DNA of 51,095 bases, from assembly GCA_016210745.1 (NCBI GenBank), contig JACQTO010000097.1:1-51095 (forward strand), in the 5' to 3' direction. Positions 1 through 11,580 of this stretch are shown here, piece after piece. The stretch comes from Betaproteobacteria bacterium (GTDB lineage: Bacteria; Pseudomonadota; Gammaproteobacteria; Burkholderiales; SG8-39). The notes under the pieces were generated by a model. It worked only from the letters and a program-made list of their open reading frames with translations. It ran no database searches and was not told the DNA's origin. The first letter of the stretch is position 1. Every line of letters begins with the position of its first letter. The position numbers and the translations under genes were made by a program.

Positions 1-1305
1 GTCCTGGCCACTTTGTTGTTCCTTTTCTCCGCTGTTGTTTTCGCCGCCGATGCCGACCTGCAGAAGGCCCAGGAGCTGATGAATCAGGGAAGGCCGCGCG
101 ACGCATTCGCGCTGCTCGATCCGCTGGAGGACGCTCGCGCGGGCGAGGTCGAATTCGACTATCTGCTCGGGATATCGGCCCTGGACAGCGGCAAACCGGA
201 TCGGGCGACGCTTGCGTTCGAGCGCGTCCTCGCGGTCAATCCGAATTTCGCCGGAGCGCGTTTGGACATGGCGCGGGCGCTGTTTCAACTGGGCGACCTC
301 CCGCGGGCAAAAACCGAATTCGAGGCAGTGCTGGGGCAGAATCCTCCCGATCAGGCCCGAACCGTGATTGCCCAGTACCTGGACGCAATCGAGAAAGCGG
401 AAAAGGCGAAAAACCGCCGCATTTCCGGCTATCTCGAATTGACGGTCGGCAAGGACGATAACGTCAACAACTCCACGAGCGTCGGTACTATCAATGTCCC
501 TGCGCTTGGAAACCTCCCGTTCACCCTCAGCCCGACCAACCTGAAGACGGGAGATAACTTCAAGACGCTCGCCGGCGGCGTGGACTTCGCCTACCAATTG
601 CGGCCGGATTTCGGCCTTTTCGCCGGAGCCGACGTGCGCGAGCGCTGGAACTTCACCCAGGACCGGTTCGATGCCGGCAACCGTGACTTGCGTGCAGGCC
701 TTGCGTTCGGTGAAGCCGCGAACTTGTTGCGCCTGAGGGCGGACACCGGCTGGGCCTACCTCGACAACAGGCTTTCGCGCAAGGCGAACGGTGTCAGCGC
801 GGATTGGCGCTATATGGTCAATCCGGCGAACCAGCTGAATGCATTCAGCGCCTATTCGCACAATCGCTTTACCGATCCCGCGGTGCAGGTCAACAGCTTC
901 AATTCCACCCTCTCGGGTGTGGGCCTGACGCACATCGTGGCCGACGGGAAAGGCGCGCTTTTCGGCAGCTATTTCTTCGGCAAAGAGCGCGATACGGATG
1001 GCCGGGCGGACGGGGCCAAAGTGCTCTACGGGTTCAGATTGGGCGGTCAGGCATCTCTGCGCGAGGATGTGGACCTGTTCGCGACCGCCTCGACGCAAAA
1101 GGGGCACTATGGCCGCGAGAACGCCACTTTTCTGACCCTGCGCAGCGACGAGCAGGACGACTTCGTAATCGGGATGAACTGGCGCTTTGCCAAAGACTGG
1201 ACGCTGCGCCCGCAGGTGCTGCAGTCCAAGAACAAATCCAATATTTCCATTTTCGAATATAAACGCACGGAGCTCTCCGCTGCCGTGCGATATGATTTTC
1301 GTTAG
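1..1305 (+). CDS. Slam-like (DUF560) TPR + outer-membrane beta-barrel protein, 5' end outside window
   Basis: The reading frame is open from the first base (V-L-A-T-L before the first possible TTG at 13), so the true start and the front of the signal peptide lie upstream. The visible part ends the signal peptide (..SAVVFAADA), then has two to three TPR-like helical repeats (about residues 20-120), then a roughly 300-residue region of alternating aromatic/polar strands typical of an outer-membrane barrel. Family hallmarks are GKDDNVN at the start of the barrel and NISIFEYKRTELSAAVRYDF at the end. This TPR-plus-barrel layout is that of surface lipoprotein assembly modulators, the translocons of type XI secretion, which move clients with barrel domains across the outer membrane. 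The gene lies about 90 nt upstream of the giant FecR protein on the same strand, so the two are probably co-transcribed. The family call is strong; the client pairing is inference. Confidence 0.8.
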   Translation, partial: VLATLLFLFSAVVFAADADLQKAQELMNQGRPRDAFALLDPLEDARAGEVEFDYLLGISALDSGKPDRATLAFERVLAVNPNFAGARLDMARALFQLGDLPRAKTEFEAVLGQNPPDQARTVIAQYLDAIEKAEKAKNRRISGYLELTVGKDDNVNNSTSVGTINVPALGNLPFTLSPTNLKTGDNFKTLAGGVDFAYQLRPDFGLFAGADVRERWNFTQDRFDAGNRDLRAGLAFGEAANLLRLRADTGWAYLDNRLSRKANGVSADWRYMVNPANQLNAFSAYSHNRFTDPAVQVNSFNSTLSGVGLTHIVADGKGALFGSYFFGKERDTDGRADGAKVLYGFRLGGQASLREDVDLFATASTQKGHYGRENATFLTLRSDEQDDFVIGMNWRFAKDWTLRPQVLQSKNKSNISIFEYKRTELSAAVRYDFR

Positions 1306-1397
1306 TAAGAGTTCTATATGCCGCTGCATATCCGGGCCACGGGGGTTAAGCGGCGGCGTGTAGGGCCTCCTTGATGCCTTCCGGTGGGAGTATTGCC

Positions 1398-4300
1398 ATG
1401 TTGCATTCGACCAGACGCCTTGCGCTGCAGGGATTCCTTGTTCTCGGCTTGACCGCGGCGGGGTGGACAGCACACGCCGCGATCGGTACGTTCCAGTTCA
1501 CCTTCGGCGACGTAAAGGTCGTCGGGACACGGGGCGAGGAGCGCGCGGCGCAGAAGGGCACTAAGCTCGACGAGGGCGAAACCGTAGTTACCGGAACTGC
1601 GGCCTCGGCGCAACTGAAGATGGTCGATGGCGGCGTTCTTGCCGTGCGTCCCGACACACAGCTCAAGTTCGACAGCTATCGCTATCCGGGCCGCGAGGAC
1701 GGTACCGAGAGAGGTTTCATGTCGCTCGTGAAGGGCGGATTCCGGACCATCACCGGCGCGATCGGCCGAGCGAACAAGGCCAACTATCGGGTAACGACGC
1801 CAACGGCGACGGTAGGCATCCGCGGCACGGACCACGAGGTGATCCATATTCCAACCCCAGCGATTGGCCAGATCGCGCTCGGGAACCCCGGAACCTACGA
1901 CAAAGTGAACGTCGGAGCGGCCTACATTCGCAACCCGGCCGGAACGATCAATATCAATCCGAATCAGGTGGGATTCGCTCCGCCGGTGCCGACCCAGGCC
2001 CCGCAATTGCTGCCGCGCGTGCCCGACTTCTTCCGGCCTACGGCCGCACCGGCGCCTAAGCAACAGCAATCGCAGCAGCAAAAGGAACAGGCGCAGCAGA
2101 AGGAGCAGGCGCAACAAAAGGAACAGGCTCCGCAGCAGCAGAAGGAACAGGCACAGCAACAGGCGCAGGCGCAACAGTCCCAACCGGAGGCCGCACCCGC
2201 GCCCGCCGCGGCACCAGCTCCAGCGGCTGCGCCCGCGCCGGAACCGATCCGGTCAGTGACGGTGATGGACAATCAGTCGCAGATGACCTCGATTGCGACG
2301 ACTTCCGCCGTTGCGGCGGCCACTCCTTCTGCAGCGCCAACGGCATTCGTGGCACAGGTGATCGCACCCACCCCGACCACGACGAGCACATCTGGGGGCA
2401 CGACATCGAGCGACACGACCAATGTTCCCATCACGTTGACCGATAGTAGCGGTTTGACCGTCAATACGACACAGCAGACAGTTACGACCAGCACCGGGGA
2501 AACGGCGAACGTCAGCCAGGGGTCGTTTGGGTTGGAGGCACAGGCCGCTGCGGATGCCGCGGCTGCATCGGCCGCCGCCCTGAATGCGCTGGTGACCAGC
2601 GCCGGCAGCGCAGTGGCGAACGACACTGTCCCCATCGCACTCAGCGCCGCCTCCCCTGTGGTCAGCTCCGCCGCTTCGGCTGTCAGCAGTGCCAGCAGCC
2701 TGACGATCAATACCGGTGCGGCTTCGACCAACGCCGCCAGCGTCGCGGCGATTGCGCAAACGGCGCAGAGCCAGGCGAACGCCGCGTTGAGCGCCTTCAA
2801 CCCCACATTTGCCGATCCTATAATCGCAGTCCCTGCAATGTCTCAATTGAGCCCGGCGGCTTCCGCGGTTCAATCGAACGCGGCCCTGGTCCAGACCGCG
2901 GCTAACGACATCGCGACGCAGGCGAACGCTCTTCCCGGCTTGCTGACATCGGCGAGTTCTGCGGCGAGCGCGATGAATGCGCAGATGACGGCGGCAAATA
3001 ACGCGCTCACGGCTCTCACCAGCCTTGGTGTCGCACAATCGGCGTCCGCGCAGAGCCTGCTCTTGGTTGCCCAGAATGCCGCGAGCGGGGCGCAGGCAGC
3101 GGCATCCGAGGTGCAGAGTCTGCAGAACGCGGGCAATTTCACCGAGGCGCAAGCGCATGTGAACATCGCCGTGCAACAACAGGCTGCTGCCGCGAACGCG
3201 CTGGCCGCCGCGCAAAAGGTGATCGAAGGGATTACCGCCGCGACCGCGGCTCAGGCGGCAGCCGGGACCCCCAGCGACACGACGGGAACGGCCTACGGGT
3301 ATGCAAATGCCGCGCAGGCTGCAGTGCAGGCGGCCTCTGCAAGCCTGCCTCAGATCGATCCCGCCTTGAGCGCGTCGGCGGCGAACCTGGTTCAGACCAA
3401 CGCGCAGATCATCGCCGACAATTACATCCAGGCCCAGTACAGCAATCCGGCGGTGGCTGCTCCGACCGGGCAGCCCGGGGTGCCCTTCGCGGGCTTCGCG
3501 CATGGCGTGCAGGCAATGAACGCGGTACCCGGCGGCGTCGAGTTTATGGGTGCGAAAGAAGAGCTGCCGATCTCGAACATTGTCTACGTCCTGGACGAGA
3601 ACAAGAACCTGGTCGAAATCAGAAGCACCGCGTACGAACGCAGCGGCTTTAACTACGACGCGCAGCTCGGGTTTCCCTCGATCAAGTTCAGCGGCGGAAC
3701 GCCGCAGGATCATTACCAGGCCGCGGACGGAACGATATATATGGGCCGCTGGCAGGGCGGCCAGGTTTCGGTAGACGACGGCGGAATCGTCTCCAACCAT
3801 GCGCTCGGAAATACCAGCGCGCATTGGCTGATCGGACACGTGCCTGGGGAGTCGTCTATCAGCACTTTCGCCGGTCCGATCAACAACGTGCAGAGGCTGA
3901 TCGGCACTTCCAATTACAGTCTGGTCGCGTCCACCAAGCCGACCGATTCGCTGGGCAATGTCGGAACCCTGAACAGCGCGTCGCTGACGGCCAATTTCAC
4001 CTCCCAGACGGTCGATGCCGGCGTGAACCTGTCCTTCCCCACGCGCGACCTGACGCTGGATGCGAAAGCGCAGAATATGGCTATCGACGGGGCAGGCTTT
4101 GTCTCGAGATCGGAAACGCTTTCTGATCCCTCGATCACTTGCGCCGGGACGGGTTGTGCGCAGTCGTACGCAGGCGAATTCCGCGGCGGTTTCACCGGCG
4201 CGGCGTCGGCGGGCGTGAGCACCGGTGCGGTGGGGACAGGCGCCGGGATGTTGTACGTGATGACGCCGTTCATAGCGAATCCCATCACCAATCAGCCCTT

Positions 4301-7094
4301 TACCGATCTCATCCAGGGTGCTGCTGTCTTCAGCACTGCCACGGCGCCGACAGCGGGCATCAACAGCAGCTTCGCCGACAATGCGAACCTGCGCCATCGG
4401 GTGGTCTACCCGATTTCGATGACAAGTTCCACGGAAACGGCATTTGCCTCGGCATCGAACTTCGATTTCACCATGCCCAACACCAATTACCTGTTCGATG
4501 CGAGCGGCAATCTCGTGCGGGTGCACGATTCCGATTACAGCATTTTCACCACCGGTGCTCAGCTGACCACCGGATCGACGCCCTCTTCGACGCAGTTCCC
4601 GACGCAATTCTCGCCATTTACCGATGCGGCGATTTCCTTCGGCCTGGGCTCGACCCCCGCCGAAAGCTACACGACCGACGGTACGGCGTTTTCCGCGATC
4701 GGATTGCGCATGGGCCGTTGGCAGGGCGGGGCTGTCAACGTCACCGATCTCTTCGACTTCAACACCGCCTACTTCGATCCGCTGGGCAATCGCAGCGCTC
4801 ACTGGGTGGTATCGCAAGTGCCAAGCGCGATACCCACCACGGGGCAATTCCAGTACACGCGTTTGCCCGGAGCGACCGCCGGAACGCCGGGCTTCGCCAC
4901 GGCGCCGACCGACGCCTACGGCAACGTCGGCGTGCTCGATGGCGCGCGGCTCGCCGTCGACTTTACCAACCAAGCTGTCAGCGCCGGTGTGCGCATGCAC
5001 ATCAACAGCGGTCCCGGTGGATCCTTGGGCGAGCAGATTCTGCGCGCGTCTGGAACCGATTTCCTGACCAGCGGCACATTCAATATCGGATCCGAGAGCG
5101 GCTTGAACGTTTCCTGCTTTGGCCTCGGTTGCGCCCCGGTGGACCCGGTTACCATGCCAGGCTATGGTGGCCGCATTGCCGGCGCGCTGTCCGGACTCAA
5201 CGCCGAAGGCGCGTTCTTCCGCTACACGTTCAATACCAACTACGCTACAGCGGCCGATGCCGCGGCTGCCGGCCGAGTGATGGACGATTACATCAATGGG
5301 ATGGTCGGATTCCAGAAAGGGGCGCAGCTGCAACCGCCGAGCCCCGGCGCCGCGGAGATCGCCACCAGCTATTTCTCTTACGACGGTCCTTCGTTGATCT
5401 TTGGAAGCAACGACGTTTTTTCGGTCAACCATTACAGCGCGGAGAGCGACGGCTTCACCGTCGACGCTTCCGGCAATTTGACTTCGGCTAAGGACGCCGA
5501 ATTTGAAGGTGACGCGCGATCGGAGTCCCTGGGCGGAACGCTCAGCCCGACGGGATTGACCACGACTACCAACGGTATTTCGTTTGGCCGATATAGCGGC
5601 AGGAACGTGAACGGTGTTGGATCAGCGCTCGAGATTAGCGGGGTCTCGGATTTCAGCGGCCCGTTCGGCAGCGCGAACTCGCAGCCTGCGCGCAACATCC
5701 TGGGCGATTACCACTGGATCAAGGGCCCCGAGCCGTGGCCGTTTTATATCTCGATGCCGATCACCGGCACGGCCACCTATACCGTGGCTGGAAATACCGC
5801 ACCGACCGATCAGAACGGAGTTGCCGGAACCCTCGATTCCGCAACGCTATTCGTCAATTTTGATCGGCAGGCGATTGACGCGAGCGTTAACGTCTGCTTC
5901 ACGGCGCCGACGACACGCACCTGGAATGCTTCGGCTTTTGGGATCCGGCTCGACGGCAGCGGCGGATTCCATGCCAGCGAGAATAACGGGCAGTTTGCGC
6001 ACAGCCGATTGGACGTAACTCTGAACGGCAGCACGGCTTTCGGCGCGATCAATGGCTCGTTGACGGGTCCCGGGCTCGACGGCGCGGTCATGTCCTACGC
6101 GTTTGGCGGCGACATTTTCAACGGCATCGCTCCTCCCACGCATGAACACGTGAATGGGGTCATCGCCTTCCAGGGTTCGCCGCAAAATACCCTGGCGCCC
6201 TACGTGCTGATGCTGTCTTCGGCTGGGATGCTGCAGGGCATCGACGCGTTCAGCGGACTTACCCCTTCGGCTGGGAATCGGGCCTTCGAGATTTCAGATC
6301 AATATCTGAGTTGGGTGGAAGGCGAGGCGCTCAACCCCTTGCGGATCAAGCGCGACAGCAAAGGCGGCATTATCGAGGCCGACTCGCGCTTCCCGGTCGT
6401 GACCTGCAACGGCCCCACCGGTGGCTGCTTCGTCAACGACATCCCAGTGCGCGTAGGGATCAATCCGGCCGGGTCCAATTCGTCTGCGACGTTCCCCTTC
6501 ATGAATCCGATCGCCAACCCGGCTACTCTCCAAGAGTTTGGTTATGATTTCGCCACGGGAATCAGTTGGGGGCGCTGGGGCGGCGGCGAGATGGCGGTTT
6601 CCGACCGGGTGAGCTTCGCGCCGCTTCCGACGCAGAACCTCGTCCCGGGCGGCCCGCATTTCATCGTCTCGACCGGTCAGTCCGGACCGACCGTATTGCC
6701 GGTTTCGGGCACGTTTTCCTATAGCTTGGTGGGCAACACCTCGCCTACCGATACCAACGGCAATATCGGCACTTTGACTTCGGCGACGTTGAACGCCAAC
6801 TTCACCGCTCAGACCGTCGATACCAGCGTCAATCTGAGCATCGCCTCGCAAGCCTGGAACGCCTCCGCTGCCGGCATGGCGATCCAGAAGGGGACTTTCT
6901 TCGAGGCCGGCAAATCGCCCAGCGGCACCGGTCCCCTCAGCGTAACCTGCAGCCCCAGTTGCGGCGCCACTTCGGGCCGACTTGTCGGGGCGTTCACGGG
7001 GCCGACCGGCCAGGGCGCGGGTATCGCCTATTCGTTGAACCAAGGCGGAACTACCGGAAGCGTCGTGTCCGGGGTGGCTGCCTTCAAGCGCTGA
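1398..7094 (+). CDS. Giant FecR-domain surface protein with four C-terminal Slam-client-like barrel modules
   Basis: I start the gene at ATG 1398, which has GGTGGGAG 7 nt upstream and opens a clean signal peptide (MLHSTRRLALQG..AHA); an in-frame ATG exists at 1371. The product is about 1898 aa. Its order is: signal peptide; FecR domain (residues ~36-150, ending TVGIRGTDHEV); a Gln-rich linker built on QQKEQA repeats (~220-265) then Pro/Ala; an Ala/Ser-rich, probably helical stalk (~380-680); and four diverged modules (~725-1898). Each module carries a GRWxGG-like strand, usually a SAHW motif, and PTDxxGNxGTL-x-SAxLxxNFxxQxVD; three of them end in GxFTG-type strands. The last module closes with GAFTGPTGQGAG and VAAFKR, which resembles the final strands of TbpB-type barrels. 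There is no lipobox, so it is predicted to be secreted or surface-bound. FecR domains in such large proteins are not sigma-factor regulators, and no fecI is present. The adhesin or ligand-binding role is inferred. Confidence 0.8.
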   Translation: MLHSTRRLALQGFLVLGLTAAGWTAHAAIGTFQFTFGDVKVVGTRGEERAAQKGTKLDEGETVVTGTAASAQLKMVDGGVLAVRPDTQLKFDSYRYPGREDGTERGFMSLVKGGFRTITGAIGRANKANYRVTTPTATVGIRGTDHEVIHIPTPAIGQIALGNPGTYDKVNVGAAYIRNPAGTININPNQVGFAPPVPTQAPQLLPRVPDFFRPTAAPAPKQQQSQQQKEQAQQKEQAQQKEQAPQQQKEQAQQQAQAQQSQPEAAPAPAAAPAPAAAPAPEPIRSVTVMDNQSQMTSIATTSAVAAATPSAAPTAFVAQVIAPTPTTTSTSGGTTSSDTTNVPITLTDSSGLTVNTTQQTVTTSTGETANVSQGSFGLEAQAAADAAAASAAALNALVTSAGSAVANDTVPIALSAASPVVSSAASAVSSASSLTINTGAASTNAASVAAIAQTAQSQANAALSAFNPTFADPIIAVPAMSQLSPAASAVQSNAALVQTAANDIATQANALPGLLTSASSAASAMNAQMTAANNALTALTSLGVAQSASAQSLLLVAQNAASGAQAAASEVQSLQNAGNFTEAQAHVNIAVQQQAAAANALAAAQKVIEGITAATAAQAAAGTPSDTTGTAYGYANAAQAAVQAASASLPQIDPALSASAANLVQTNAQIIADNYIQAQYSNPAVAAPTGQPGVPFAGFAHGVQAMNAVPGGVEFMGAKEELPISNIVYVLDENKNLVEIRSTAYERSGFNYDAQLGFPSIKFSGGTPQDHYQAADGTIYMGRWQGGQVSVDDGGIVSNHALGNTSAHWLIGHVPGESSISTFAGPINNVQRLIGTSNYSLVASTKPTDSLGNVGTLNSASLTANFTSQTVDAGVNLSFPTRDLTLDAKAQNMAIDGAGFVSRSETLSDPSITCAGTGCAQSYAGEFRGGFTGAASAGVSTGAVGTGAGMLYVMTPFIANPITNQPFTDLIQGAAVFSTATAPTAGINSSFADNANLRHRVVYPISMTSSTETAFASASNFDFTMPNTNYLFDASGNLVRVHDSDYSIFTTGAQLTTGSTPSSTQFPTQFSPFTDAAISFGLGSTPAESYTTDGTAFSAIGLRMGRWQGGAVNVTDLFDFNTAYFDPLGNRSAHWVVSQVPSAIPTTGQFQYTRLPGATAGTPGFATAPTDAYGNVGVLDGARLAVDFTNQAVSAGVRMHINSGPGGSLGEQILRASGTDFLTSGTFNIGSESGLNVSCFGLGCAPVDPVTMPGYGGRIAGALSGLNAEGAFFRYTFNTNYATAADAAAAGRVMDDYINGMVGFQKGAQLQPPSPGAAEIATSYFSYDGPSLIFGSNDVFSVNHYSAESDGFTVDASGNLTSAKDAEFEGDARSESLGGTLSPTGLTTTTNGISFGRYSGRNVNGVGSALEISGVSDFSGPFGSANSQPARNILGDYHWIKGPEPWPFYISMPITGTATYTVAGNTAPTDQNGVAGTLDSATLFVNFDRQAIDASVNVCFTAPTTRTWNASAFGIRLDGSGGFHASENNGQFAHSRLDVTLNGSTAFGAINGSLTGPGLDGAVMSYAFGGDIFNGIAPPTHEHVNGVIAFQGSPQNTLAPYVLMLSSAGMLQGIDAFSGLTPSAGNRAFEISDQYLSWVEGEALNPLRIKRDSKGGIIEADSRFPVVTCNGPTGGCFVNDIPVRVGINPAGSNSSATFPFMNPIANPATLQEFGYDFATGISWGRWGGGEMAVSDRVSFAPLPTQNLVPGGPHFIVSTGQSGPTVLPVSGTFSYSLVGNTSPTDTNGNIGTLTSATLNANFTAQTVDTSVNLSIASQAWNASAAGMAIQKGTFFEAGKSPSGTGPLSVTCSPSCGATSGRLVGAFTGPTGQGAGIAYSLNQGGTTGSVVSGVAAFKR

Positions 7095-7144: not shown

Positions 7145-7888
7145 TTAGTCCGGCGCCACCAGCCCGAGCGTAATCGCCTTGGAGACGGCGTGGTGCGTAT
7201 TGGCCGCGCCGAGCTTGCGGCGCGCATTCGCCAGGTGAAACGTGACGGTGCGCTCGGCGATCCCGAGCAGACTCCCGATAGCACCCGTGGTGCGTCCGGC
7301 CGCCGTCCAATGCAGGCAATCCCGCTCGCGGCTGCTCAGCTGCGGCGACTGCGGCGAGTACGCCTTCGCGTTTGCGCGGCGATGCTCACGCTCGAGGATG
7401 CGTCTTGCTGCTTCGTGGACAAAGCACACAAGCAGTTGGCACTCGGCCAGCGCGTCGTAAGCGTTGCGTTCGGCGACAGGTCCTGAGCGAGCGGTGCCGA
7501 AGCTGATGGCGCTCCATTCACCGCGCGGCGCATGCAGCGGGCACGTGACGCCGGTGACCAGTCCGAACTTGCGCGTATCGCGGTAGAACTGCGGATAGTC
7601 GGGCAGGAATTCGTGCCAAAGGATGGGTGTGACCGAGTTCAGCGCGCGGCGGCGAACCGGGTGGCTGCGCGCATCCAACCCTTGCTCGACACGATAGCTT
7701 CGCCAGGCCGGCGGAAATCCGTCGATGCAGATTTCAGCCTGGTCGCGTTGCAGTGGCGGAAAGCGCCCCCGGTAGACATAGTGCCGGAATCCGAGGCGTA
7801 CCCCGAATTTTTCGATTATCGCGTCCAGACCCGCAAGCGAATTCGCCGCGAGAACTTGATCAAACCAGGCCGCTTGTCCCGGATTCAT
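7145..7888 (-). CDS. LuxR-family regulator, autoinducer-binding-like domain + HTH (LuxR solo)
   Basis: The 247-aa protein has an N-terminal autoinducer-binding-like domain (~10-165) and a C-terminal LuxR helix-turn-helix (~180-245: LSSRERDCLHWTAAGRTT, then ERTVTFHLANARRKLG). In the ligand domain PPAW, PILWHEF and GVTCPLHAPRGEWSAISFG correspond to conserved positions. The usual Asp-Pro pair is replaced by HP in ARSHPVRR, and the W-to-Y spacing is 3 rather than the usual 4, so acyl-homoserine-lactone binding is uncertain. No luxI homologue is in the window. It is convergent with the FecR protein and divergent from the type I secretion genes, which makes it a candidate regulator of either. Confidence 0.85.
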   Translation of the reverse strand: MNPGQAAWFDQVLAANSLAGLDAIIEKFGVRLGFRHYVYRGRFPPLQRDQAEICIDGFPPAWRSYRVEQGLDARSHPVRRRALNSVTPILWHEFLPDYPQFYRDTRKFGLVTGVTCPLHAPRGEWSAISFGTARSGPVAERNAYDALAECQLLVCFVHEAARRILEREHRRANAKAYSPQSPQLSSRERDCLHWTAAGRTTGAIGSLLGIAERTVTFHLANARRKLGAANTHHAVSKAITLGLVAPD

Positions 7889-8173
7889 GACGCAATTCTC
7901 CCGAAGGAAGGTCTTCGCCTGCCGCTACTTTACCTTTATCGGCAACAGTTGCGGAAACTGCAGGATTCGCAGCGTTTTCCGACCAGGCTTTGACGGGGCT
8001 TGTCGCTTCCACGCACGGCCGGAGGAATACCCGGCGGAGGGGGCGCGCATTCCCAGGCACTCGATAGCCGGGCTGTAAGAACCAACAGGTATGCAGCGCG
8101 TGGAAAATGAGGAAAATGGATTCCCCGTACCGGCCGGCATTCGGGCGGCAGAGTATGGATAAAGACACTGCTC
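7889..8173. other. Divergent intergenic region, LuxR gene / type I secretion operon
   Basis: This 285-nt region must hold the promoters of the two divergent transcription units. It contains no gene I can support. A weak dyad CTG-N9-CAG occurs at 7958-7972, one base short of the lux-box spacing, and I do not call it as an operator. Confidence 0.4.
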
Positions 8174-10246
8174 GTGGAGGAAGGCTTGAGCAGACCGGCA
8201 ACCGCAATCGAACGCGACCATTTCCTCTGGATGCTGGATGCGTTGTGCCGGCTCTATCGCATCCCCTTCGACGGCGGCTTGTTGATGCAACGGTTTCCGC
8301 CGCCGCATTCGCTCGCCGGATTGTTGCGTGCGGTGCGCTCGTTGGGATTTGGCGCCGAGGCGCGGCCCGCGTCGGCTGAAGAAATCCTGGTCCTCGATCC
8401 GCCGTGCTTGATCCTTCGCGCCGCCGCCCCTGCGCTTGTAATAGGCAGGGACGGGGAGAACGTGGTGATCCTCGAACCGGCGAGTGCCGCGCCGAAATCG
8501 CTTGACGCGGCTGCGCTGGGAGCCGATGGAACCATTTGGATCGCGCAGTTTTCGTGTCACTCCGAGCCGCTCGGCGACGCCGATATGCCCGGCACCGCAG
8601 AAGACCGGTTTGGTTTCTCCTGGTTCGTCCCGGAATTGCTGCGGCACCGATCGGTATGGCGCGACGTGCTGATCGCGTCGGCTGCGATTCAACTGCTTGG
8701 ACTGGGAGTGCCGCTCCTGACGCAGGTTGTCGTCGACAAGGTCGTCGTGCACCAGACGACGAACACGCTTGTTGTGATCGGCCTGGCGCTGGCCCTCGCA
8801 GTCGTGTTTACCGCGGTCATGAGTTGGGTGAGGCAGTACTTGGTGCTGCACACGGGCAACCGCGTCGATGCCGTGCTTGGCATGCGGGCATTCGAACACC
8901 TCCTGCAGTTGCCGCCTCGATATTTCGAGCGGCGCCCGACCGGGACGCTGGTGGCGCGGCTGCAGGGAGTCGAAACGATCCGCGAATTCGTGAGCGGAGC
9001 CGCCGTCACGCTGCTTCTCGACTTGCCTTTCCTCGGCCTCTATCTGGCGGTCATGCTCTGGTACAGCTGGCAGCTAACCCTGGTTACGGTAGCGATTCTC
9101 GGCACAATCTCGATCATGAGCCTGGCCATCGTACCGCTCCTGCGCTCGCGGCTGAACCGCCAGTTTCTGCTCGGCGCGCGCAATCAGGCCTTGCTCACCG
9201 AGTATGTCGCTGCGATCGAGACGGTCAAGTCGCTGCAGATGGAGCCTCAGCTCAGGCACCGGTTCGGCGATCAGCTTGGGTCCTATCTGGGCGCGAGTTT
9301 CAGCGCTCGGCAGCTCTCGAACGGCTATAGCGTTGCGGCCAACGCGCTCGAACAGCTGCTTGCGCTGCTCGTGTTGTGCCTGGGCGCGTGGATGGTGATG
9401 CAAAACGATGGGTTCACAATCGGCATGCTGGTCGCGTTTCAAATGGTCGCCGGGCGCATGTCGCAGCCGGTATTGCGCATGGTGGGTCTGTGGCAGGAAC
9501 TGCAGCAAGCGGGGATCGCGGTGAGCCGCCTTGGCGACATCATGAATGCTCCGATTGAACCGTATTCATCGATTCCGAGCGGGGCAGGAGCGCAAATCGG
9601 AGAGATCGAGATCCAGGACTTGAGCTTTCGCTACACGGAGGACACGCCGTTTCTTTACCGCAATCTCAACGCCAGGATCCCCCCGGGCGCCTGTGTCGCG
9701 CTGATGGGTCCCTCGGGCTGCGGCAAGAGCACACTGGCGCGGCTGCTGCAGGGGTTCCATTTCCCCACCGGAGGGGCGATCCGCATCGGCGGCAGGGACA
9801 TCCGCAATCTGTCCGTGAACGAACTGCGGCGCCATTTCGGTGTGGTGCCGCAGGAGACGACGCTTTTCTCCGGCACTGTCTACGAAAACCTGGTCCGGGC
9901 CAATCCCGAGGCGTCGTTCGACGACATCGTTCAGGCGTGCCGGTTTGCCGAAATTCACCAGGTCATCGAAGGGTTGCCACAGGGCTATCAGACCCGCATC
10001 GGCGAGCACGGCAGCGGGCTTTCGGTAGGGCAGAAGCAGCGGCTCGCCATAGCTCGTGCATTGCTCCGGCGCGCGCCCGTTCTAATTTTCGACGAGGCCA
10101 CCGCGAGCGTCGATGCCGACACCGCCGAACAGCTTGCGCACACGATCAGCGCGCTGCGCGGAAAAGCCACCATCGTCTTTATCGCGCACCAGCTTCCGCT
10201 TGGCTTGGTGGTCGATGAAACCATCGTGCTCGGGGACTCTACATGA
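8174..10246 (+). CDS. Type I secretion ABC transporter (HlyB-like, degenerate C39 domain)
   Basis: The product is about 690 aa. GTG 8174 is used here; TTG 8186 sits 5 nt after GGAGG (8176-8180) and is an equally good start. The order is: an N-terminal C39-like domain (~15-130) without the catalytic Cys of bacteriocin-processing transporters, so it is of the non-proteolytic HlyB type; a six-helix ABC exporter membrane domain (~155-440); and an ATPase domain with Walker A GPSGCGKST (~512), signature LSVGQKQRLAIARALL (~615) and Walker B VLIFDEATA (~635). It should power export of an unprocessed C-terminal-signal substrate from the inner membrane through a TolC-type channel. It overlaps the HlyD gene by ATGA. 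No RTX-type substrate or TolC gene is in the window, and the neighbouring FecR protein has a Sec signal, so it is not an obvious cargo. Confidence 0.9.
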   Translation: MEEGLSRPATAIERDHFLWMLDALCRLYRIPFDGGLLMQRFPPPHSLAGLLRAVRSLGFGAEARPASAEEILVLDPPCLILRAAAPALVIGRDGENVVILEPASAAPKSLDAAALGADGTIWIAQFSCHSEPLGDADMPGTAEDRFGFSWFVPELLRHRSVWRDVLIASAAIQLLGLGVPLLTQVVVDKVVVHQTTNTLVVIGLALALAVVFTAVMSWVRQYLVLHTGNRVDAVLGMRAFEHLLQLPPRYFERRPTGTLVARLQGVETIREFVSGAAVTLLLDLPFLGLYLAVMLWYSWQLTLVTVAILGTISIMSLAIVPLLRSRLNRQFLLGARNQALLTEYVAAIETVKSLQMEPQLRHRFGDQLGSYLGASFSARQLSNGYSVAANALEQLLALLVLCLGAWMVMQNDGFTIGMLVAFQMVAGRMSQPVLRMVGLWQELQQAGIAVSRLGDIMNAPIEPYSSIPSGAGAQIGEIEIQDLSFRYTEDTPFLYRNLNARIPPGACVALMGPSGCGKSTLARLLQGFHFPTGGAIRIGGRDIRNLSVNELRRHFGVVPQETTLFSGTVYENLVRANPEASFDDIVQACRFAEIHQVIEGLPQGYQTRIGEHGSGLSVGQKQRLAIARALLRRAPVLIFDEATASVDADTAEQLAHTISALRGKATIVFIAHQLPLGLVVDETIVLGDST

Positions 10247-11580
10247 CCGAATTCTCGCCGGAGGCACTGCAACTCAGCGAGCGTCCACCGGCGCCCTTGC
10301 CGCGACTCGTGCTGCATGTGCTGCTCACGCTGCTCGCCGCGGTCTGCGCGTGGGCGTGGGTCGGCCGTTTGGACGTGATCGCGGTGGCCCAGGGAAAGAT
10401 CGTGCCGCAGAGCTACCTGCAGATCGTCCAGCCGGCAGATTCGGGGATATTGCGCGAGCTGCTCGTCGGCGAAGGGGCCCAGGTGAAAGCCGGTCAGGTG
10501 CTGGCGCGGTTCGACGCGCACATCGCCGAGGCGGATATCCGTCAGGTTCGCAACGAACTCCAGCTTCGTGCTTTGCAGCTTCGCAGAATCGACGCGGAAC
10601 TTTCCGGTGCACCGATGTCGCGAAGCGCGGACGATTCGCCGCAGCTCTACGCACAGGTGGAGACGCAGAGCCGCGCGCGACGACAGGCGCACCTCGACGC
10701 GTTGGAGGCTGAGCGCGGGATCATCACCAAGGCCGAGCAAGACCTGAAAAGTGCGCTTGAAATTGAAACTAAGCTTACCAAGACGCTGCCGATTTTCAGG
10801 CAGCAGGAGCAGGCATTCGACCAGTTGACGCGCGACGGATTTGCCGGTCGCCTGATGTTGCTCGACAAGCAGCGCGACCGCATCGATAAGGAGCAGGATC
10901 TGGCGGCACAACGGTACGCGATCGCGAGCCTCACGGCTCTGGTTGCGCAGGGCCAGAAGCGAATCGCGCAAATCCAGTCGAACTACCGCCAGGGACTTCA
11001 AAACGAGCGTGTCGAAGCACAGGCGCAATTCCATCGGCTGCAGCGGGAATGGGACAAGCACTCTCATCGCCGTGCATTGCTCGAACTCAAGGCGCCGCAG
11101 GACGGTACGGTCAAGGATTTGGCGACGCGCACCATCGGTTCGGTCGTTTCGGCAGGCACCGTGCTCATGACAGTTGTCCCGGGAAACGAACCGTTACAGG
11201 CTGAGGTTTGGATAACGAACCAGGACGCGGGGTTTGTGCTTCCCGGTCAGCCGGTCAAGCTCAAGTTCGCCGCTTACCCGTTCCAGCGGTTTGGATTGCT
11301 GAAAGGCGAACTGGTGCATTTGAGTCCGGATGCGAGCGAATTGCCCCAGGCCGCGAATTTGGAGCGCCGGCGCGGCGAACTCGAGCATGTTCTGCCGCCT
11401 ACAGGCTACAGGGCTTTGGTTTCGCTCAAGTCTGTTGCCTTGGAGGCGGACGGCAAGCAGCATCGCTTGACAGCCGGCATGCAGGTCACCGCCGAGATTC
11501 ATTTGGGTACTCGGACCGTGTTCGAGTACCTGTTCTCTCCGCTGCGCAAGATGGCTCACGAGGCGGCGCGCGAGCGCTGA
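10243..11580 (+). CDS. HlyD-family periplasmic adaptor of type I secretion
   Basis: The 445-aa membrane-fusion protein has a short cytoplasmic N-terminus, one membrane anchor (LVLHVLLTLLAAVCAWAWVG, ~25-45) and a first lipoyl half (GKIVPQSYLQIVQPADSGIL). This is followed by a long alpha-helical hairpin (~95-270), a second lipoyl half (LKAPQDGTVKDLATRTIGSV) and the C-terminal beta domain ending TAEIHLGTRTVFEYLFSPL. It links the HlyB-type transporter to an outer-membrane channel. The start codon overlaps the transporter stop by 4 nt, so the two are translationally coupled. The family call is secure; the substrate is unknown. Confidence 0.92.
   Translation: MTEFSPEALQLSERPPAPLPRLVLHVLLTLLAAVCAWAWVGRLDVIAVAQGKIVPQSYLQIVQPADSGILRELLVGEGAQVKAGQVLARFDAHIAEADIRQVRNELQLRALQLRRIDAELSGAPMSRSADDSPQLYAQVETQSRARRQAHLDALEAERGIITKAEQDLKSALEIETKLTKTLPIFRQQEQAFDQLTRDGFAGRLMLLDKQRDRIDKEQDLAAQRYAIASLTALVAQGQKRIAQIQSNYRQGLQNERVEAQAQFHRLQREWDKHSHRRALLELKAPQDGTVKDLATRTIGSVVSAGTVLMTVVPGNEPLQAEVWITNQDAGFVLPGQPVKLKFAAYPFQRFGLLKGELVHLSPDASELPQAANLERRRGELEHVLPPTGYRALVSLKSVALEADGKQHRLTAGMQVTAEIHLGTRTVFEYLFSPLRKMAHEAARER

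What the first reader, a model, noticed from the sequence alone, without database searches (positions are those of the whole stretch)
1..7094. Slam-type (type XI) translocon next to a giant FecR-domain protein built like a multi-barrel client
Seen: a TPR plus DUF560-like barrel gene followed on the same strand by a roughly 1900-residue exported protein whose C-terminal 1170 residues are four modules of barrel-like strands. The last ends with GAFTGPTGQGAG and VAAFKR, echoing the closing strands of TbpB-type client barrels. Known: Slam proteins move clients bearing one or two such barrels, mostly lipoproteins such as TbpB, fHbp and HpuA, some not lipidated such as hemophilin. Inference: this is a type XI pair with a non-lipidated, four-barrel, FecR-headed client, larger than the clients I know. 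A periplasmic or surface FecR domain on such a client would be a new arrangement.
Basis: partly seen in the sequence, partly recalled or inferred. Interest (0 to 1): 0.75.

Follow-up and report, generated by a model that had tools for sequence, protein, structure and literature searches.

The report
Slam channel with giant FecR cargo
Beside the gene for a Slam-like outer-membrane export channel lies a gene for a giant protein headed by a FecR domain and predicted to fold into four copies of the lobe that such channels are known to carry, so the two genes likely form a variant of a known route for putting proteins on the bacterial surface.

Summary
Gene 1 (1-1305, 5' end cut by the contig edge) is a TPR plus predicted 14-strand-barrel protein of the Slam/DUF560 (type XI, T11SS) kind. 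Gene 2 (1398-7094, 1,898 aa) has a signal-peptide-like start without cysteine, a FecR domain, a ~500-residue linker and four mutually homologous modules. AlphaFold2 predicts each module as handle plus eight-strand barrel (pLDDT 87); best PDB matches are TbpB, LbpB, HpuA, fHbp, NHBA and hemophilin/HphA. By sequence alone the barrel link is weak. A FecR ORF directly follows the Slam gene in 70 of 78 relatives' loci (67 of 72 with at least 1.5 kb downstream). Cargo varies: FecR alone, FecR plus one lobe, FecR plus 3-6 lobes; in three loci FecR and lobe array are separate genes, each with its own signal-peptide-like start. Already in print: T11SS cargo with two to three handle-barrel copies, and a FecR regulator gene inside one Slam/TbpB locus. 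A FecR head on the cargo, or FecR as the usual partner of a Slam branch, I found in no paper searched. Export is inferred; FecR's role (docking or retention) is a guess I favour. New variant of a known kind.

The parts
1..1305 (+). Slam-like (DUF560/SlipAM) outer-membrane protein: TPR helices then a predicted 14-strand barrel; 5' end cut by the contig edge
1398..7094 (+). FecR-headed, four-lobed predicted T11SS cargo, 1,898 aa
1398..1478 (+). signal-peptide-like start, about 27 residues, no cysteine (read by eye, no predictor run)
1581..1841 (+). FecR domain PF04773, residues 62-148
1995..3494 (+). linker rich in Ala, Gln, Ser and Thr, about residues 200-699
3495..4346 (+). lobe 1: predicted handle plus eight-strand barrel (residues 700-983)
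4383..5327 (+). lobe 2: predicted handle plus eight-strand barrel (residues 996-1310)
5343..6179 (+). lobe 3: predicted handle plus eight-strand barrel (residues 1316-1594)
6201..7091 (+). lobe 4: predicted handle plus eight-strand barrel (residues 1602-1898), at the C-terminus where T11SS cargo carries its targeting barrel
   Evidence: position rule

Best explanation
A gene for a Slam-type (type XI) outer-membrane translocon stands directly in front of a gene for a FecR-headed protein whose four C-terminal modules are predicted to be TbpB-like handle-plus-barrel lobes, and the channel most likely carries this unlipidated giant to the cell surface. Shown by calls: gene order, domains, the four-fold repeat, and the pairing of Slam and FecR in relatives. 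Predicted by models: the lobe fold and the 14-strand channel. Inferred from known Slam systems: the protein crosses the inner membrane by Sec, stays unfolded in the periplasm, its last barrel is recognised by the Slam channel and the lobes fold outside. Inferred and weaker: the FecR head stays on the periplasmic side, docks the cargo on the Slam and, with the long linker, tethers the lobes in place of a lipid anchor, while the front lobes bind an unknown ligand.
Against: No export data. The window Slam is one bit under the SlipAM cut-off. The window lobes have no Pfam TbpB_B_D hit, no cargo hit by sequence in the PDB, and the profile comparison is only suggestive (best probability 45%; 42% over 23 columns in the reverse direction; 13-16% with last lobes alone). 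In 12 of 78 loci Slam is followed by FecR without any lobe, which the cargo reading does not explain. Five of 72 loci with at least 1.5 kb downstream have no FecR behind the matched Slam. In Lysobacter a FecR regulator with a sigma factor sits in a Slam/TbpB locus (PMC11233812, passages), which fits a regulatory FecR.
Confidence: 0.72

Rival explanations
1. FecR is exported too and acts as a surface effector; the whole protein passes through the Slam channel and is released or held by its lobes, with nothing left in the periplasm.
For: Known soluble T11SS cargo such as hemophilin/HphA is released (PMC8560813, passages); N-termini of known cargo are the effector part (PMC12282271 section 15); weak FecR-family resemblance to Leptospira lipoproteins LipL45 and Lsa33.
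Against: FecR is more conserved than the lobes and its identities follow Slam TPRs and last lobe, not the first lobe; FecR also occurs without lobes and as a separate gene.
Confidence: 0.3
2. The Slam-like barrel and FecR form a signalling device in the manner of FecA-FecR, and the lobes only sense a ligand.
For: FecR is classically a periplasmic regulator (general knowledge); in Lysobacter sp. 3655 an RpoE-type sigma factor, a FecR regulator, a TonB-dependent transporter, a TbpB-like protein and a Slam form one gene cluster (PMC11233812, passages); a CHASE2-cyclase gene is near Slam in 9 of 78 loci (cluster, one member checked); FecR-only genes behind Slam.
Against: Gene 2 has no Pfam hit other than FecR, so no anti-sigma or STN domain was seen; no sigma-factor gene among the five window proteins scanned; the FecR here is fused to cargo lobes in most loci and has a signal-peptide-like start. 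I did not survey sigma factors in the relatives' loci.
Confidence: 0.12
3. Gene 1 is a polysaccharide exporter like BcsC or PelB and the giant is an unrelated envelope protein.
For: The best PDB matches of the gene 1 model are BcsC and PelB (TM-score 0.35-0.40 by query length).
Against: SlipAM, not a BcsC barrel family, is hit; the NCBIfam BcsC match covers TPRs only, 19.3 bits against a cut-off of 858; the neighbour carries T11SS-cargo lobes. Neighbouring polysaccharide genes were not tested.
Confidence: 0.04
4. The type I exporter genes downstream (8174-11580) export the giant.
For: HlyB- and HlyD-type genes start 1.1 kb downstream.
Against: The giant has an N-terminal signal-peptide-like start; no relative of HlyB or HlyD was found in the 78 Slam loci, whose flanks reach at most 10 kb (tblastn E<=1e-10).
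Confidence: 0.03

Closest known systems
Slam1/Slam2 with TbpB, HpuA, fHbp (Neisseria; T11SS subcluster 1A)
   Same: TPR plus DUF560 barrel; neighbour with handle-plus-barrel lobes; last barrel at the C-terminus.
   Different: Known clients are mostly lipoproteins with one or two lobes and no FecR; here no lipobox, four lobes, FecR head, long linker.
Hemophilin/HphA with HsmA/HrpB (T11SS, soluble cargo)
   Same: Signal peptidase I type cargo; predicted lobes 3 and 4 match hemophilin and HphA.
   Different: One lobe, no FecR, heme binding; no ligand known here.
Sphingomonas and Psychrobacter surface proteins (predicted T11SS cargo)
   Same: Two to three handle-barrel copies in one protein (PMC12282271 section 15).
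   Different: Pro-Thr-rich N-termini, mostly predicted lipoproteins; no FecR reported.
Lysobacter sp. 3655 orf4990-4994 (sigma, FecR regulator, TonB transporter, TbpB-like protein, Slam)
   Same: FecR and Slam genes in one cluster (PMC11233812, passages).
   Different: FecR there is described as a regulator gene beside a sigma factor, separate from the cargo.
BcsC and PelB
   Same: TPR helices leading into an outer-membrane barrel.
   Different: No matching barrel family by sequence; different neighbour.

Membership tests
T11SS / Slam (DUF560) outer-membrane protein | N-terminal TPRs | tested here: met
   TPR_16 3.9e-15 and others; helices 2-137 in the model
T11SS / Slam (DUF560) outer-membrane protein | SlipAM (PF04575) profile | tested here: inconclusive
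   Window protein 21.1 bits, cut-off 22; own-genome search also under the cut-off; 31 of 40 relatives at E<=0.001, best 4.9e-15
T11SS / Slam (DUF560) outer-membrane protein | 14-strand outer-membrane barrel (strand number of Slam recalled) | tested here: met
   14 long strands, residues 139-433, pLDDT 92.5; closure of the barrel not computed
T11SS / Slam (DUF560) outer-membrane protein | moves a cargo across the outer membrane | not testable with these tools
   needs an experiment
T11SS cargo | C-terminal eight-strand barrel preceded by a handle/pedestal | tested here: met
   AlphaFold2 model and structure matches; strands counted from the DSSP list, the broken fifth strand counted once in each lobe
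T11SS cargo | Sec signal peptide, lipidated or not | tested here: inconclusive
   signal-peptide-like start read by eye, no cysteine before residue 915; no predictor available
T11SS cargo | gene next to a T11SS gene | tested here: met
   window order; FecR ORF behind Slam in 70 of 78 loci, 49 with lobes behind Slam
T11SS cargo | translocation depends on the Slam protein | not testable with these tools
   needs an experiment
Pfam TbpB_B_D (PF01298) | profile hit in the window protein | tested here: not met
   no hit in the whole protein at E<=1 nor in the four lobes at E<=10; hits in relatives lie in an extra barrel before the last lobe
FecA-FecR-FecI regulation | anti-sigma/STN domains on FecR and a sigma-factor neighbour | tested here: not met
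   only PF04773 in gene 2, no sigma factor among five window proteins scanned; relatives not surveyed for sigma factors
BcsC/PelB exporters | barrel family by sequence | tested here: not met
   no BcsC/PelB barrel family among Pfam hits; NCBIfam BcsC matches TPRs only, far below cut-off
BcsC/PelB exporters | polysaccharide synthesis genes nearby | not tested
   neighbour clusters were not annotated for this

The most novel reading that the evidence does not exclude
FecR is a dedicated, separable part of a betaproteobacterial branch of type XI secretion: a domain that folds in the periplasm, docks the cargo on the Slam TPRs and corks the channel, so that a chain of three to six lobes hangs from its own translocon by its linker without any lipid anchor; split operons show that the cork and the chain can be two proteins.
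Probability: 0.3. Interest if true: 0.78.

Novelty: new variant of a known kind. Interest (0 to 1): 0.6.

Why it matters
The T11SS papers I read cover cargo of animal-associated (cluster 1) and marine (cluster 3) bacteria (PMC12282271). This pairing would give a cargo rule for an environmental branch whose loci carry names such as Gallionella, Sideroxydans, Ferrigenium and Burkholderiales, shows the handle-barrel lobe used as a repeat of up to six, and offers a testable answer to how cargo without a lipid anchor may be held at the surface. The split operons separate head and lobes naturally, so the role of FecR can be tested directly.

Tried and rejected
Without result: PDB sequence search with the four-module profile (best E 0.05, a flagellar hook protein, judged chance); promoter/terminator scan of 1250-1420 (one terminator-like site on the minus strand, nothing useful); PDB sequence search with the Slam alignment (49 hits, TPR proteins as far as the names tell).

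Dropped arguments: PF01298 hits in relatives first looked like proof that the window lobes are TbpB_B_D by sequence; mapping put all six in an extra barrel between lobes. Shared contig lengths of Slam and cargo hits were not used, because for 12672 the Slam locus L004 shows no cargo. G056's 999-aa open frame looked like a Slam-cargo fusion; it is a long open frame in front of an ordinary start. G034 looked like cargo without Slam; its cargo ORF begins 67 bp from the contig end. My lipobox pattern flagged 10 of 121 homologues; several of those cysteines lie in the hydrophobic stretch before a later possible cleavage site, but without a predictor lipidation of some relatives is not excluded. My first wording that no paper links FecR with a Slam locus was wrong: one search shows one (Lysobacter), and I raised the signalling rival and lowered the novel reading slightly for it. 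VIA-align re-scores Foldseek's list only, and its note says model residues 613-951 (most of lobe 3) are barely tested by the rows shown; lobe 3 rests on a few rows (6om5, 5t5f, and longer TbpB alignments).

Full report
Observation. The window is one whole contig of a genome held in 270 contigs. Gene 1 (1-1305) is open at the left edge and encodes TPRs followed by a barrel region. Gene 2 starts best at the ATG at 1398 and ends at 7094. It has a signal-peptide-like start without cysteine, a FecR domain (residues 62-148), a linker of about 500 residues rich in Ala, Gln, Ser and Thr and four modules homologous to each other. Downstream lie a LuxR-type regulator (7145-7888, minus strand) and a type I exporter pair (8174-11580).

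Gene 1 is Slam-like. The SlipAM match spans the barrel at 21.1 bits, under the cut-off of 22. Of 40 aligned relatives (chosen from the 120 listed of 1,077 hits), 31 match SlipAM at E<=0.001, the best at 4.9e-15, and 10 match the Slam TPR model. The AlphaFold2 model (pLDDT 92.5, pTM 0.69) has TPR helices and 14 long strands. Its best PDB matches are BcsC and PelB, with TM-scores of 0.35-0.40 by query length; no Slam is named among the 50 rows shown.

By sequence the link is weak. The window protein and its four lobes have no PF01298 hit. A profile of the four lobes finds no cargo in the PDB. A profile-profile comparison with TbpB_B_D barrels of other genomes gives at best 45% probability, P 2.2e-4, over 106 columns in the right register; the reverse direction aligns 23 columns (42%), and last lobes alone 22 columns (13-16%). 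Six of six relatives scanned, chosen because the listings showed PF01298, carry a barrel over that cut-off; in each it lies in an extra stretch just before the last lobe, and five of the six also have a FecR hit. One of them, P0314, is named 'transferrin-binding protein-like solute binding protein' by NCBI (listing).

Pairing. A scan of one genome per species with the Slam alignment found 118 relatives; the best 80 were kept, giving 78 loci. A FecR ORF lies directly downstream of the matched Slam on the same strand in 70 of 78: in 49 loci lobes are found behind Slam, in 21 I detect FecR but no lobe, 4 of these cut by the contig end. Of the 8 misses, 3 have under 500 bp downstream (L002, L009, L075); L004, L010, L045 and L066 show no FecR ORF in the sequence held; L020 is the first of two tandem Slam genes, the second of which is followed by FecR. 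With at least 1.5 kb downstream it is 67 of 72. From the other side, 76 of the 77 FecR ORFs found in these loci lie directly behind a Slam ORF; the other follows a FecR cargo. My FecR profile was built from the cargo heads, so unrelated FecR genes may have been missed and this last figure is biased upward.

Within the window's taxonomic family, Slam is in 38 of 98 genomes (E<=1e-30) and the lobe in 21 of 98 (E<=1e-10), both in 20; Fisher p 1.6e-9, not corrected for kinship. The one genome with lobes only, G034, has its cargo ORF beginning 67 bp from a contig end. I fetched 38 of the 47 Slam places: a FecR ORF follows directly in 31; 4 misses are cut by the contig end within 300 bp (L101, L110, L127, L136) and 3 are real in the sequence held (L102, L105, L135). 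The two surveys share contigs (for example L004 and L102, L010 and L105, L005 and L100 by length and position), so they are not independent.

Forms. (a) FecR plus one lobe, about 450-700 aa, in more distant members (for example L113, L115, L116, L120, L124, L137). L065, L069, L077 and L078 have a lobe-like C-terminus by eye that my profile did not score. (b) FecR plus several lobes: among the 208 proteins, 65, 115, 22 and 6 have 3, 4, 5 and 6 lobes; 186 of 208 have a FecR hit, and many of the other 22 look like fragments. Among 85 four-lobe proteins, lobes 1, 3 and 4 find their best match in the same position of other proteins in 7,003 of 7,140, 6,191 of 7,046 and 6,984 of 7,140 comparisons, lobe 2 in 4,338 of 7,116, so the array is old. 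(c) FecR alone, frames of 226-325 aa, in 12 of 78 loci titled Gallionella (8) or Nitrosomonadales (4). (d) Split: in L038, L044 and L062 a short FecR gene is followed by an overlapping second gene with its own signal-peptide-like start; lobes were scored behind it in L044 and L062, while the L038 contig ends first. Database proteins P0238, P0240 and P0260 begin as these three do; P0206 and P0230 are further ones. The second protein begins with a stretch that looks like the end of the FecR region, so FecR itself may be split between two exported chains; this is my reading, no profile confirmed it.

What FecR may do. In 39 loci with complete fused cargo of at least two lobes, mean pairwise identity is 0.73 for Slam TPRs (33 loci), 0.58 for FecR, 0.47 for the Slam barrel (33 loci), 0.45 for the last lobe and 0.30 for the first. 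FecR identities follow the Slam TPRs (rho 0.57), the last lobe (0.59) and the Slam barrel (0.48), not the first lobe (0.08). There is no control gene in that comparison, and first lobes of arrays of different length are not strictly orthologous. Slam1 was reported to need unfolded TbpB and the chaperone Skp (PMC9090332, passages). A FecR domain that folds in the periplasm would then be left behind and hold the chain in the channel. I favour this step, at about 0.3; that FecR goes out with the lobes is about as likely.

Literature. In PMC12282271 (outline, passages and section 15) and PMC8406197 (passages) the word FecR does not occur in the main text. FecR with DUF560 gave no paper, 'FecR domain' with 'surface lipoprotein assembly modifier' none. 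A search for two of six FecR/Slam terms listed 25 of 26 papers; two of those hold FecR and a Slam term. One of them, PMC11233812 (passages), reports in Lysobacter a cluster of sigma factor, FecR regulator, TonB transporter, TbpB-like protein and Slam; the other, PMC12075148, I saw in the listing only. So FecR near a Slam is in print as a regulator gene; a FecR head on the cargo, or FecR as the usual partner of a Slam branch, I found in none of these. The library holds open-licence papers only. Two to three handle-barrel copies are described for Sphingomonas and Psychrobacter.

Verdict. A T11SS-type pair whose predicted cargo has four lobes and a FecR head, in a branch where FecR is the usual partner of Slam. 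New variant of a known kind; export and the role of FecR remain to be tested.

Noticed in passing
L038 5030-6652, L044 9092-14324, L062 3837-7290: Split operons: Slam, short FecR gene, then a lobe-array gene (in L038 only its start is held) with its own signal-peptide-like start that begins with what looks like the end of the FecR region.
   Followed up: partly
L028 8299-9843, L034 4437-5987, L041 8289-9818; cluster in 8 of 78 loci: A lipoprotein-like gene with an IgGFc_binding domain (PF17517, 3 of 3 scanned) sits mostly directly upstream of Slam in loci with FecR and no lobe; a possible other cargo.
   Followed up: partly
L044 5465-7696 and 8 further loci: A CHASE2 plus guanylate cyclase gene (one member checked) lies near Slam-FecR in 9 of 78 loci.
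   Followed up: partly
L020, L043, L049: Tandem Slam genes, with FecR behind both in L043 and L049 and behind the second in L020.
   Followed up: no
L073 11275-16246: One Slam followed by two FecR cargo ORFs in a row.
   Followed up: no
L042, L069: The pair appears in MAG contigs titled Desulfobacterales and Bordetella parapertussis; the titles may be wrong or the pair may have moved.
   Followed up: no
window 4140-4160, 5115-5132, 6405-6428, 6948-6962: Cys pairs four to seven residues apart (residues 915/920, 1240/1245, 1670/1677, 1851/1855); the pairs of lobes 1, 2 and the last barrel sit in one barrel loop of lobes 1, 2 and 4, the pair at 1670/1677 in the handle of lobe 4; possible disulphides or a binding site.
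   Followed up: no
window 7145-11580: A LuxR-type autoinducer-binding regulator and a HlyB/HlyD-type exporter pair stand next to the cargo in the window only; HlyB and HlyD relatives were not found in the 78 loci.
   Followed up: partly
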